The notes beneath the pieces are model-generated. The model did no database searches. It was given only the letters and a program-made list of their open reading frames with translations, and was not told the origin of the DNA. The translations under genes and the position numbers were made by a program. From an uncultured Clostridia bacterium (GTDB lineage Bacteria > Bacillota > Clostridia > Peptostreptococcales > Anaerovoracaceae), in contig CAMCQA010000001.1 of the NCBI GenBank assembly GCA_945876935.1, positions 62,001 to 126,000 on the forward strand: a DNA stretch of 64,000 bases. Direction: 5' to 3'. This document shows positions 25,476-29,314 of the stretch, piece after piece; the stretch's first letter is position 1; each line of letters starts with the position of its first letter.

Positions 25476-27698
25476 ATGAATGATTTGTTGGAAATTGAAG
25501 GTGTCCTTGAAAAGATTATTTTTCACAGCAAAGATAGTGACTTTTTAATAGCTAGCTTTTTATCAGAGGATGATAGAATCACGGTTACAGGTCCTATACA
25601 TAGAGCTGTAGAGGGAAATAATTATAGGCTTTATGGGGAGTTTATCCTTCATAAGAAGTATGGTGAACAATTTAAGATAGATAGGTCTGAAGCTTCGCTA
25701 CCTAGAGGAGAAGAAGCTATAATAGCTTTTCTTTCGTCAAGATTTATCAAAGGTATAGGTAAGGCGAAAGCCAAGTCTATAGTAGCTATGTTTGGTGAAA
25801 GAACATTTGAAATTATTGAGAACTCACCAGATGAGCTTTTAAGAGTTAAGGATATAGGGGAAAAAACTGTAGAGGCAATAATTGAAGGTTATGCAGCCTA
25901 TGGTCATAGCTCAAGAGTTTATTCTTACTTTCACAGTATAGGACTTAGCTCAAAAATGATAGATTCTGTATACAGACTTCATGGTGACAAAGCTATAGAG
26001 TTATTTGAACAAAGCCCTTATGATTTTGCTAGAGATGTAAAAGGTTTGGGCTTTTTAAAGGTTGATAAAATAGCTCTTAAAAATGGAATAGCTCAAGATG
26101 ATTCGCAAAGGCTTAAAATGGGCATAGAGCATATTCTTCAAAGGGAAGCTTCAAATGGACATGTGTATGTAGAAAAGCATAAACTTATATCTAAAGGAGC
26201 TGATTTGCTACAAGTTGAATCAGAACTTTTGGAAGAAGTAATAAGAGATATGGCGTTAGAGCTAACTTTGAAAATAGATTTTTCTTATCAGGACAATGTT
26301 TATTTGATGCAAAATTATGCTATGGAAGAGCTTATTGTAGAAAAGGTATTTTCCATGGTTAAAGATAATACCAAAACCTTACCTTACAAAATAGAGAATT
26401 TGATAAAGGATACTGAAAAAAAATATGATATTTCCTTTTCTGATGAGCAAAAAAAAGCTATAGAAGGATCTATAAATTCATCGATAAGCATAATAACCGG
26501 TGGCCCTGGGACAGGTAAAACGACTATAATTAGAGGACTTATAAATATTTTTTCTCATGCTGATATGGAAGTAGCGTTGACTGCGCCTACGGGAAGAGCA
26601 GCGAAGAGAATTACAGAAACTACAGGAAAGACTGCCTCTACTATACATAGATTATTGGAATACTATGCAGATGAAAATCAAAATATGAGATTTAATAGGA
26701 ACTTTGATAACCCCTTAGATGAAGAAGTTATTATTTTAGATGAAGCATCTATGGTAGACCTGCAGCTTATGCATAGCTTGATGAAAGCCATAAAAACAGG
26801 ATCTAGGTTGATAATAGTGGGAGACGAAGACCAGCTTCAATCTGTAGGTATAGGAAATGTTTTAGGTGATTTAATAGAGTGTAGCTATGTTCCATGCTTT
26901 AGACTTAAAGAAATATTTAGGCAGGCCAAGGAGAGTAATATCATTATTCATTCTCACGAAATAAATCAAGGAATAAGCCCTACTTTTTCAAATAGTAGGG
27001 AGGGTGATCTATTTTATATAGAGAGAATGAAAGAAGATGAGGCTGTAGAGATAATAAAGGATTTGGCTTCCCACAGATTGGAAAGTTATTTTCCTATAGA
27101 AAATAAAATTATGGATATACAAGTGGTATCTCCTAGTAAAAAGGGTTACCTTGGAAATGAAAATATGAACAGAGTTCTTCAAGAACTATTGAATCCTCCA
27201 TCCTCCGATAAGACTGAAATCTCCATTGGGGATAAGGTTATAAGAGTTGGAGACAAAGTTATGCATACAAAAAATAACTACAATATTCCTTGGTCCAATA
27301 TTGTTGACCATACTGAAGGGAAAGGTGTTTTTAACGGAGAAGTTGGATTTGTTCAGGAAATAGATAGTGAGGAAGAGGCTATATACATACTATTTGATGA
27401 TGAAAAACTGGCATTTTATGATTATGAAGAAGCTAAAGAGCTAAGTTTAGGTTATAGTATGACTGTACACAAAAGTCAGGGAAGCGAATTTCCAGTAGTT
27501 ATAATTCCTCTGTACAGAGTTCCATATATTTTATCTCATAGAAATTTGATATATACTGCCATAACTAGAGGAAAAAGGGGAGTCGTTCTTGTTGGGGATA
27601 GACGATTTCTAGATAATATGGTGAAAAATGTAAATAATAATAAACGAAATTCAGGGCTTTCATCTCGCATAAGAGCTAGATTTGAAAGAAATATATAG
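25476..27698 (+). CDS. recD2: ATP-dependent 5'-3' DNA helicase RecD2
   Basis: 740 residues. The extended N-terminal region typical of RecD2 has helix-hairpin-helix repeats (FIKGIGKAKAKSIVAMFG, RVKDIGEKTVEAIIEGY). Helicase motifs follow: Walker A ITGGPGTGKTTII, motif Ia TAPTGRAAKRI, Walker B VIILDEASMVD, motif III GDEDQLQSVGIGNVL, and C-terminal SMTVHKSQGSEFPVV with TAITRGKRGVVLVGD. RecD2 acts outside a RecBCD complex and aids replication-fork integrity. It overlaps comF by 17 bases. Confidence 0.95.
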   Translation: MNDLLEIEGVLEKIIFHSKDSDFLIASFLSEDDRITVTGPIHRAVEGNNYRLYGEFILHKKYGEQFKIDRSEASLPRGEEAIIAFLSSRFIKGIGKAKAKSIVAMFGERTFEIIENSPDELLRVKDIGEKTVEAIIEGYAAYGHSSRVYSYFHSIGLSSKMIDSVYRLHGDKAIELFEQSPYDFARDVKGLGFLKVDKIALKNGIAQDDSQRLKMGIEHILQREASNGHVYVEKHKLISKGADLLQVESELLEEVIRDMALELTLKIDFSYQDNVYLMQNYAMEELIVEKVFSMVKDNTKTLPYKIENLIKDTEKKYDISFSDEQKKAIEGSINSSISIITGGPGTGKTTIIRGLINIFSHADMEVALTAPTGRAAKRITETTGKTASTIHRLLEYYADENQNMRFNRNFDNPLDEEVIILDEASMVDLQLMHSLMKAIKTGSRLIIVGDEDQLQSVGIGNVLGDLIECSYVPCFRLKEIFRQAKESNIIIHSHEINQGISPTFSNSREGDLFYIERMKEDEAVEIIKDLASHRLESYFPIENKIMDIQVVSPSKKGYLGNENMNRVLQELLNPPSSDKTEISIGDKVIRVGDKVMHTKNNYNIPWSNIVDHTEGKGVFNGEVGFVQEIDSEEEAIYILFDDEKLAFYDYEEAKELSLGYSMTVHKSQGSEFPVVIIPLYRVPYILSHRNLIYTAITRGKRGVVLVGDRRFLDNMVKNVNNNKRNSGLSSRIRARFERNI

Positions 27699-28464
27699 CT
27701 TCAATAAATATGAAAAAGATAGTATACTTATAGGGGTTAGGAATATTGGAAATTATTTTGCTAACCTAATATATCCGACAAGTTTATACTGCATTTGTTG
27801 TGAAAGCTTCATAGGTGAAAACAACAGATATAGTCTGTGCACTAGCTGCTTTCAGAAAATAAGGTGGAATAATGAACGAGTCTGTAAAAAATGTGGAAGA
27901 CCGTTAAGAATTAACAATCATACTGAATTTTGTAATGACTGCTTGATGGAAGAGAGGTCATTTGTGAGAGGAAGCATGGCAACAGGGTATGACTTATTAG
28001 AACGAATAATCATATCTAAGTTCAAAAATGGTAAGAGAGAATTTATTGGAAGAAGCGTAGGATCTATTTTAGCGGATAAACTTTCTGAAGAGCTATGGAT
28101 TGAAGAGATTGATTTTCTTAGTTATGTTCCTATATCTAAAGAAAAGCTCAAAATTAGAGGTTTTAATCAAAGCGAGACAATATGTAAATTTTTAGGGAAA
28201 AAACTTGAAATTTCGGTCATCAATACTTTGATTAAGAAAAAAGATTTGAGTTCTATGAAGCGATTGAATAGATTAGATAGAAGTAGAATTATTAAAGGCA
28301 GTATCGCTTTAGACTTAAAATGTAAAAATATAATATTAAATAAGAATATTTTAATTGTTGATGATGTGTTTACAACGGGAGCAACTATGGAGGAGTGCAG
28401 TAAGATTTTACTCAGGAATGGAGCTAAATCAGTAAGTGTAGCTTGTTTTTCTGCAGCGTGGTAA
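27682..28464 (+). CDS. comF: ComF family protein (phosphoribosyltransferase fold)
   Basis: 260 residues from TTG 27682; a stop 10 bases upstream in the same frame and no internal ATG before the conserved region make TTG the only credible start, with a poor ribosome-binding site and probable coupling to recD2. Two Cys pairs form a zinc ribbon (YCICCESF, LCTSCF, then CKKCGRPL and CNDCL). The C-terminal PRTase domain has YVPISKEKLKIRGFNQS and ILIVDDVFTTGATM. ComF is linked to DNA uptake in naturally competent bacteria, with a helicase/primosome link; its role outside competence is uncertain. Confidence 0.88.
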   Translation: MKEIYSFNKYEKDSILIGVRNIGNYFANLIYPTSLYCICCESFIGENNRYSLCTSCFQKIRWNNERVCKKCGRPLRINNHTEFCNDCLMEERSFVRGSMATGYDLLERIIISKFKNGKREFIGRSVGSILADKLSEELWIEEIDFLSYVPISKEKLKIRGFNQSETICKFLGKKLEISVINTLIKKKDLSSMKRLNRLDRSRIIKGSIALDLKCKNIILNKNILIVDDVFTTGATMEECSKILLRNGAKSVSVACFSAAW

Positions 28465-28495
28465 ATTGAAAAAATATTCTTTAAAAGATTTTGTT

Positions 28496-28667
28496 ATAGT
28501 GGTCGCCTAGGTCTGTGATTGAAAGGCCAGGCTAGCTACGGGCGAAAGGTCCCACGTAAGCTGTACGCAGGGCGGCAGTGATCATGGCGTAGTTTAGAAG
28601 TAAGTCCTCTGAGAAACTCAGGTAAAGGCAGGTGTGGGGGCAAAGATCAGGTCAGCTAGGCGACTAT
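28496..28667 (+). ncRNA. raiA-motif noncoding RNA
   Basis: About 172 bases closed by a long terminal stem (ATAG..TCGCCTAG at 28496-28510 with CTAGGCGACTAT at 28656-28667). The interior is GC-rich and much more structured than its surroundings, with a GGGCGAAAGGTCCCAC segment, CTGAG-AAA-CTCAG hairpin at 28609-28621 and conserved-looking purine-rich single-stranded stretches. It lies directly upstream of the HPF/RaiA gene, the defining context of the raiA motif in Firmicutes and Actinobacteria. Work in Clostridium links this RNA to sporulation and aggregation. Assigned from memory of the motif and context; no covariance search was run. Confidence 0.8.
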
Positions 28668-28684
28668 TATATATATTGCAAATA

Positions 28685-28713
28685 TGTACTTGAAAAGCTA
28701 ATTGTGATATAAT
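28685..28713 (+). promoter_or_regulatory. Candidate promoter between raiA RNA and hpf
   Basis: An extended -10 TGATATAAT (TATAAT at 28708-28713) with a poor -35 (TGTACT) 17 bases upstream. It lies after the 3' strand of the RNA, so hpf can be transcribed independently of the RNA. Confidence 0.5.
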
Positions 28714-28758
28714 AAAACCATACAATTTCATATTTTTTATGATAAGGAGGGCGTTATT

Positions 28759-29283
28759 ATGAAGATTATATTAGTTAATAAGAACGTTAATGTAACTGAA
28801 GAGTTAAGAGATATTATCGATAAGAAGTTTGATAAGCTATCAAAGTATTTTGATGATGATATAACGGCTCAAGTATTGCTCTCAAAAGAAAAGCACTTTG
28901 AAAAGATAGAGGCAACAATATCTGTAAAAGGTACTTTGTTCAGAGCTGAAAGTCGTGGAGAAGATGTACATTTCGGCATAGACAAGGTTATAGATAAGCT
29001 TTCTTCTCAGATTTCTAAATATAAAGGGCGTCTTGCAAAAAGGCACAAGGGTAAAGTTGGAATTCAGTTTGATGCAATACCGGACTATCATGTGGAGACT
29101 AAAGACGAAACACCCGTAAAGAGAAAGAAAGTAGAGACTAAGGTTATGTCTATTGCAGATGCTATTATGAGCATGGAACTGGTAGGCCATGATTTTTATC
29201 TTTTCAAAGATGATGAAAGTGGAAACTCTGCTGTAGTATACAAAAGAGAATCCGGAGGTTATGGTCTGTTAGAAATGGATTAA
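28759..29283 (+). CDS. hpf: Ribosome hibernation-promoting factor, long form
   Basis: 174 residues. The N-terminal domain (VNKNVNVTEELRDIIDKKFDKLSKYFD, AHVxLSKEK-type strand VLLSKEKHFEKIEATI) binds the ribosomal decoding region. A linker with a basic patch leads to the C-terminal dimerisation domain (VMSIADAIMSMELVGHDFYLFKDDESGNSAVVYKRESGGYGLLE), which makes it a long HPF able to form 100S dimers. Strong AAGGAGGG site. Placed directly behind the raiA-motif RNA. Confidence 0.95.
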   Translation: MKIILVNKNVNVTEELRDIIDKKFDKLSKYFDDDITAQVLLSKEKHFEKIEATISVKGTLFRAESRGEDVHFGIDKVIDKLSSQISKYKGRLAKRHKGKVGIQFDAIPDYHVETKDETPVKRKKVETKVMSIADAIMSMELVGHDFYLFKDDESGNSAVVYKRESGGYGLLEMD

Positions 29284-29284
29284 T

Positions 29285-29314
29285 CATAGATGATGCCTTT
29301 AGGCATCATCTATG
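29285..29314 (+). other. Strong T-less hairpin between hpf and cdaA
   Basis: Perfect 13-bp stem CATAGATGATGCC/GGCATCATCTATG with loop TTTA, starting just after the hpf stop. No T-run follows, so it may be a weak terminator, an mRNA stabiliser or a processing site. Confidence 0.65.

What the first reader, a model, noticed from the sequence alone, without database searches (positions are those of the whole stretch)
28496..28758. raiA-motif RNA upstream of long-form hpf with a separate downstream promoter
A GC-rich, highly structured 172-base RNA closed by a long terminal stem sits directly before the hibernation factor gene. An extended -10 between them suggests the RNA and hpf can be made as separate transcripts, supporting a trans-acting or structural RNA and not a simple leader. 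The RNA's molecular mechanism is still not settled.
Basis: partly seen in the sequence, partly recalled or inferred. Interest (0 to 1): 0.6.

Follow-up and report, generated by a model that had tools for sequence, protein, structure and literature searches.

The report
raiA (ModT) RNA beside hpf gene
A known but poorly understood folded RNA sits just before a ribosome-hibernation gene that has its own promoter, and it is kept in a non-sporulating bacterium that has no gene for making cyclic di-GMP, so its core job cannot be the c-di-GMP and sporulation control reported for it so far.

Summary
Confirmed. Window 28502-28664 (+) is a raiA-motif (ModT) RNA, RF03072, 126.9 bits, E 7.7e-31, the only copy in this 1.29 Mb genome. 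It is the compact form (163 nt, short P6, no P7/P8). The cryo-EM-type helices and pseudoknot pk-1 pair, and most covary, in 66 aligned RNAs. It lies between comF and a true long-form hpf.

It belongs to hpf, so hpf can be made separately. No terminator separates them, so read-through remains possible, and the RNA's own promoter in the window is unresolved.

Beyond the finding: (1) this genome and 45 other high-quality raiA-positive relatives lack any GGDEF domain, and 20 of the 46 also lack Spo0A, so c-di-GMP or sporulation cannot be the RNA's core output. (2) In relatives the closing stem runs up to about 13 bp past Rfam's ends, often into a U-rich tract. (3) A 110-121 nt "mini-raiA" in Thermosediminibacter/Tepidanaerobacter relatives, below Rfam's cut-off, keeps only P1, P3, P4, a hairpin and pk-1.

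Known RNA family; this locus is a new member.

The parts
28502..28664 (+). raiA-motif (ModT) RNA, compact form: P1, P3a/b, P4, P5, short P6, pseudoknot pk-1
   Evidence: RF03072 126.9 bits; helices hold in 66 aligned RNAs: P1a 97%, P1b/P3/P4 100%, pk-1 98.5%, P6 93% of cells paired, with compensatory changes in P1, P1b, pk-1, P5 and P6
28495..28501 (+). 5' arm of the closing-stem extension beyond the Rfam boundary (7 bp, 2 of them G-U, weak in the window)
   Evidence: 7 contiguous pairs in register with 28665-28671; family mean 6.8 of 8 paired against 3.9 null, maximum of 2000 permutations 4.54; flank duplex energy of the window alone is not above null
28665..28671 (+). 3' arm of the closing-stem extension
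   Evidence: as above
28705..28713 (+). extended -10 (TGATATAAT) of an hpf promoter; predicted start about 28720 (inferred)
   Evidence: 32/41 relatives against 2.7 expected; 0/24 loci without hpf
28744..28751 (+). Shine-Dalgarno AAGGAGGG of hpf
   Evidence: sequence
28759..29283 (+). hpf, long-form ribosome hibernation promoting factor
   Evidence: PF02482 E 1.4e-21 and PF16321 E 5.2e-21; TIGR00741 above cut-off
27682..28464 (+). comF-family gene (start codon uncertain), stop 37 nt before the RNA
   Evidence: TIGR00201 E 2.6e-26, below its curated cut-off; PF18912 + PF00156; comF upstream in 64 of 74 family loci
28492..28500 (+). TGTTATAGT, doubtful -10 for the RNA (overlaps the stem arm)
   Evidence: a start about 7 nt on would remove covarying P1 positions, so probably not the RNA's promoter (inference)

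Best explanation
The locus encodes a raiA-motif (ModT) RNA of the compact class, made as an independent stable RNA (from a promoter in or before the 3' end of comF, or by processing of the comF message), followed by hpf with its own extended -10 promoter. Shown here: family membership, fold with pk-1, the conserved hpf promoter, absence of c-di-GMP synthesis and Spo0A in this genome. From published orthologues: abundant, stable, trans-acting, affects entry into stationary phase. Inferred: the RNA works through its P1/P3/pk-1 core, most likely by binding a protein or ligand, in a general growth-transition or translation-related role; c-di-GMP and sporulation effects in C. difficile are downstream consequences. 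Neighbouring hpf is functionally related but not controlled in cis by the RNA.
For: CM hit. Covarying helices and pseudoknot. hpf-specific extended -10. RNA kept where hpf is gone: followed by fumarase, malic enzyme, MATE or cdaA genes. Own genome lacks GGDEF and Spo0A; of 127 high-quality raiA+ relatives 46 lack GGDEF and 20 lack both, while all 5 high-quality raiA-negative genomes have GGDEF. Promoters ahead of the RNA are enriched: extended -10 in 18/74 against 2.0 expected in the family, sigma-A-like pairs in 22/28 against 2.7 elsewhere. Trans complementation, abundance, growth-phase phenotype and protein-dependent DMS changes: PMC11706538.
Against: No expression data for this organism. 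No recognisable promoter for the RNA and no terminator after it in the window. hpf is the downstream gene in 50/74 family loci, more than a purely unrelated neighbour would suggest, so some co-expression may matter. GGDEF absence rests on one Pfam model over draft genomes (own genome 98.8% complete).
Confidence: 0.72

Rival explanations
1. The RNA is a cis-acting riboswitch or leader that regulates hpf in its own mRNA.
For: Adjacent and co-oriented in 50/74 family loci; no terminator between them in the window; Rfam type is 'Cis-reg; riboswitch'.
Against: hpf has its own extended -10 inside the gap in 32/41 loci; gap varies from 61 to 606 nt; hpf absent downstream in 24/74, with unrelated genes there; the RNA closes on itself with an extended stem; trans complementation in C. 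difficile (PMC11706538).
Confidence: 0.1
2. The RNA is a trans-acting regulator whose conserved output is c-di-GMP level and sporulation, as reported for C. difficile.
For: modT deletion raises c-di-GMP and removing dccA-01583 links it to sporulation (PMC11706538).
Against: RNA present in genomes with no GGDEF domain (46 of 127 high-quality raiA+ relatives) and with neither GGDEF nor Spo0A (20), including all four genomes of this genus.
Confidence: 0.07
3. The RNA is excised from the recD2-comF operon transcript; the long closing stem is a processing stalk and/or the arm of an intrinsic terminator formed by the RNA's own ends.
For: RNA starts a median of a few tens of nt after comF in 64/74 loci, leaving little room for a promoter outside comF; closing stem extended and covarying; T-rich tract right after it: 34/74 loci against 18 and 7 in the next two 28-nt bins; separate hairpin terminators in only 3/74.
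Against: Extended -10 or sigma-A-like pairs do occur ahead of the RNA in a minority, well above chance; window stem extension is weak and lacks a U-run; C. difficile uses a single sigma-A start (PMC11706538). It is compatible with the best explanation, differing only in how the RNA is made.
Confidence: 0.35
4. The RNA is a ribozyme acting on tRNA or rRNA precursors.
For: Compact, highly conserved fold; tRNA and 5S levels rise in the modT mutant (PMC11706538); hpf neighbour.
Against: No activity shown; mini-raiA keeps only P1/P3/P4/pk-1, so any active site must lie there.
Confidence: 0.1

Closest known systems
raiA-motif RNA / ModT (RF03072); C. difficile ModT and C. acetobutylicum raiA
   Same: CM score above cut-off, comF upstream and hpf downstream, P1/P3/P4/P5/P6 and pk-1 of the cryo-EM fold (PMC11751092)
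   Different: Compact P6 form (called variant 1, 32% of sequences, in PMC11751092); host lacks GGDEF and Spo0A; hpf has its own conserved extended -10; closing stem extended beyond Rfam ends
Mini-raiA found here (Thermosediminibacter, Tepidanaerobacter, Fervidicola, Thermovorax)
   Same: P1, P3, P4 and pk-1 core; each model finds the other's members
   Different: 110-121 nt, no P6-P8, no pk-2 segment; clear sigma-A promoter; next gene is a zf_Tbcl (PF13451) protein
OLE, GOLLD, ROOL large structured RNAs
   Same: Large, conserved, structured, largely unexplained bacterial RNAs
   Different: Those form multimers; raiA is a monomer in cryo-EM (PMC12286853); no sequence relation tested

Membership tests
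raiA-motif RNA (RF03072) | Covariance-model score over Rfam gathering threshold | tested here: met
   126.9 against 101.3 bits, full model span
raiA-motif RNA (RF03072) | P1, P3, P4, P5, P6 helices and pk-1 as in the cryo-EM structure | tested here: met
   Pairs hold in the window and 65 other RNAs; P1a, P1b, P3a, P5, P6 and pk-1 exceed all column shuffles and strand swaps; P3b and P4 vary too little to test
raiA-motif RNA (RF03072) | pk-2 (two pairs between pk-loop and J4-1c) | not tested
   Too short to test by covariation; the J4-1c consensus is present in the CM alignment
raiA-motif RNA (RF03072) | Gene context comFC upstream, raiA/hpf downstream (common, not universal) | tested here: met
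raiA-motif RNA (RF03072) | Own sigma-A promoter as in C. difficile | tested here: inconclusive
   None clear in the window; enriched across relatives
raiA-motif RNA (RF03072) | Abundant, stable, trans-acting transcript | not testable with these tools
   Needs RNA work; shown for orthologues in PMC11706538
cis-acting riboswitch/leader of hpf | Shared transcript with an expression platform (terminator or SD-masking helix) between RNA and gene | tested here: not met
   No terminator; hpf-specific promoter lies between; a shared read-through transcript is not excluded
c-di-GMP/sporulation regulator (ModT model) | Host makes c-di-GMP and sporulates | tested here: not met
   No GGDEF, no Spo0A_C in the genome

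The most novel reading that the evidence does not exclude
raiA RNA has a core function independent of c-di-GMP and sporulation, carried by a roughly 110-nt P1/P3/P4/pk-1 core that survives alone as mini-raiA, and acting on translation or RNA housekeeping at growth transitions, which would explain its recurrent company with hpf.
Probability: 0.3. Interest if true: 0.75.

Novelty: new member of a known kind. Interest (0 to 1): 0.45.

Why it matters
[quoted passage not shown] The comparison here separates what is constant (P1/P3/P4/pk-1, comF company) from what is not (P6-P8, hpf linkage, c-di-GMP, sporulation). Genomes that keep the RNA without GGDEF or Spo0A, relatives that lost the RNA but kept comF, and a natural minimal RNA give direct tests of mechanism. 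The hpf promoter result removes the simplest cis explanation.

Tried and rejected
Single-sequence folding energy as evidence: not significant. Generic -35/-10 and terminator scan: finds neither promoter and no terminator; too blunt. TGTTATAGT at 28492-28500 as the RNA's promoter: rejected as likely, because its start would remove stem positions that covary in the genus. Extended -10 as an AT-richness artefact: rejected by shuffles, reverse strand and the 0/24 control. The extended -10 as part of the RNA gene: rejected by the same control. All relatives lacking the RNA as assembly gaps: two high-quality genomes (G010, G063) have comF with both flanks and no RNA, so real loss occurs; the other three had no convincing comF hit and stay unclear. 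Conserved UCCU in the pk-loop/P6 masking the hpf SD: by inspection it is equally conserved where hpf is absent, so not pursued. Soares et al. 2024 (PNAS): not held, cited only through PMC11706538.

Full report
OBSERVATION. The Rfam covariance model for raiA RNA (RF03072) matches window 28502-28664 on the + strand over its whole length, 126.9 bits against a curated cut-off of 101.3, E 7.7e-31. It is the only copy in the genome (1.29 Mb, 98.8% complete). The RNA is 163 nt and skips 43 model positions in the P7/P8 region, which is the short-P6 'variant 1' that the cryo-EM paper gives as 32% of sequences (PMC11751092). Its GC is 55% in a 34.5% GC window, and the gap to hpf is 22%. Upstream is a comF-family gene ending 37 nt before it; downstream is hpf with both the S30AE and the S30AE C-terminal domain, so long-form. 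Folding energy of the single sequence is not exceptional (z -0.8), so structure was tested by comparison.

RELATIVES. raiA RNA is present in 225 of 249 genomes of the window's family and 127 of 132 high-quality ones, and in all four genomes of the genus. I compared 74 loci. comF is directly upstream in 64, hpf downstream in 50 with a gap of 61 to 606 nt. In the other 24 the RNA stands before other genes or none close by; by reading of the translations these include fumarase, malic enzyme and MATE-type transporters, and cdaA in L029 and L070, where hpf seems to have dropped out of a comF-RNA-hpf-cdaA order.

STRUCTURE. On an alignment of 66 compact RNAs the helices taken from the cryo-EM description hold: P1a 97%, P1b, P3a, P3b and P4 100%, pk-1 98.5%, P6 93%, P5 80% of cells paired. 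P1, P3a, P5, P6 and pk-1 exceed every one of 300 column shuffles and strand swaps; P3b and P4 vary too little to test. pk-1 shows true compensation (for example C-G, G-C and A-T at one position). The sequences are related, so shuffle counts are not probabilities.

CLOSING STEM. The closing stem does not stop at Rfam's boundary. In the first 8 positions outside it 6.8 are paired against 3.9 for flanks swapped between loci (maximum of 2000 permutations 4.54), and pairing stays above 70% out to about position 13. The tract after it is T-rich: at least 6 T in 8 in 34 of 74 loci for +1..+28, against 18 and 7 in the next two bins. Separate hairpin terminators are rare (3 of 74). My inference is that in many relatives the RNA's own ends form the terminator or a processing stalk. 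In the window the extension is 7 bp, AU-rich, with two G-U pairs and no U-run, so there this is weak.

PROMOTERS. Of 41 loci with hpf within 260 nt, 32 carry TGN plus at least 5 of 6 of TATAAT, against 2.7 (sd 1.5, maximum 8 of 300) in dinucleotide shuffles and 4 on the reverse strand; its distance from the RNA and from hpf varies. In the first 120 nt after the RNA it occurs in 29 of 50 loci with hpf and 0 of 24 without (Fisher p 3e-7; relatedness is not corrected for). So it is the hpf promoter and it goes when hpf goes. Ahead of the RNA, extended -10s occur in 18 of 74 loci (2.0 expected) and sigma-A-like pairs in 22 of 28 loci of other families (2.7 expected), so the RNA usually has its own promoter. 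In the window the only candidate, TGTTATAGT (28492-28500), overlaps the stem, and its start would remove P1 positions 2-3, which change in compensation among the four genus members (sequences). The RNA's promoter here is therefore open; read-through from recD2-comF with processing is a real alternative.

FUNCTION. Published work on C. difficile shows an abundant, stable, trans-acting RNA whose loss delays entry into stationary phase, lowers sporulation and raises c-di-GMP, with orthologues that complement (PMC11706538). This genome has no GGDEF domain and no Spo0A C-terminal domain. In the family sample, 46 of 127 high-quality raiA-positive genomes lack GGDEF and 20 lack both; all five high-quality genomes without the RNA have GGDEF. 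The RNA therefore outlives c-di-GMP signalling and sporulation. That the RNA is in non-spore-formers was known and noted by those authors; the c-di-GMP test I did not find in the literature held. I take the c-di-GMP and sporulation effects as downstream of a more general role. The RNA is not indispensable: G010 and G063 keep comF with both flanks but have no RNA.

MINI-RAIA. A phylum sample gave full-span but sub-threshold matches of 113-119 nt in two families (one search finds no other Rfam family there). A pattern search found 13 named records, among them Thermosediminibacter litoriperuensis, Fervidicola ferrireducens, Thermovorax subterraneus and Tepidanaerobacter. Sixteen distinct RNAs of 110-121 nt keep P1, P3, P4, a variable P5 hairpin and a pk-1 of 4-6 pairs, and lack P6-P8 and the pk-2 segment (helix assignment by inspection). 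They have a clear sigma-A promoter and sit before a zf_Tbcl protein gene (PF13451), the same place that full-length raiA RNAs hold in related families. A model built from them hits, in 399 genomes, only loci the Rfam model also hits, the window included (39.7 bits, E 4.7e-7). They are the only copy in their genomes. This looks like natural reduction to a core.

VERDICT. Known RNA family, new member; observation confirmed, interpretation supported with the two qualifications above (possible read-through, RNA promoter unresolved). What is new here is comparative: an hpf-specific promoter, an extended covarying closing stem, persistence without c-di-GMP synthesis, and a minimal RNA form. Molecular mechanism remains inferred.

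Noticed in passing
L135-L139, L141-L145, L150-L162: Mini-raiA RNAs of 110-121 nt, below Rfam's cut-off, only copy in their genomes, between flagellar genes and a zf_Tbcl (PF13451) gene in Thermosediminibacter/Tepidanaerobacter relatives.
   Followed up: yes
L115, L117, L119-L122, L124-L126, L128-L131, L133, L140, L148, L149: In several other families full-length raiA RNA lies about 30-40 nt before a zf_Tbcl (PF13451) gene; in L122 and L124 the order is RNA - zf_Tbcl - hpf. A recurrent neighbour I did not find mentioned in the papers held.
   Followed up: partly
L029, L070: By reading of the translation, comF - raiA RNA - cdaA with hpf and its promoter missing: natural deletions of hpf with the RNA kept.
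   Followed up: partly
window 29285-29314: Perfect 13-bp inverted repeat (loop TTTA) right after the hpf stop, before cdaA, without a U-run.
   Followed up: no
L076 (G010), L084 (G063): comF with both flanks but no raiA RNA in genomes over 90% complete: probable true losses.
   Followed up: yes
L002-L009: A minority of genera in the same family carry the long 206-nt form of the RNA with much higher scores, while most carry the compact form.
   Followed up: no
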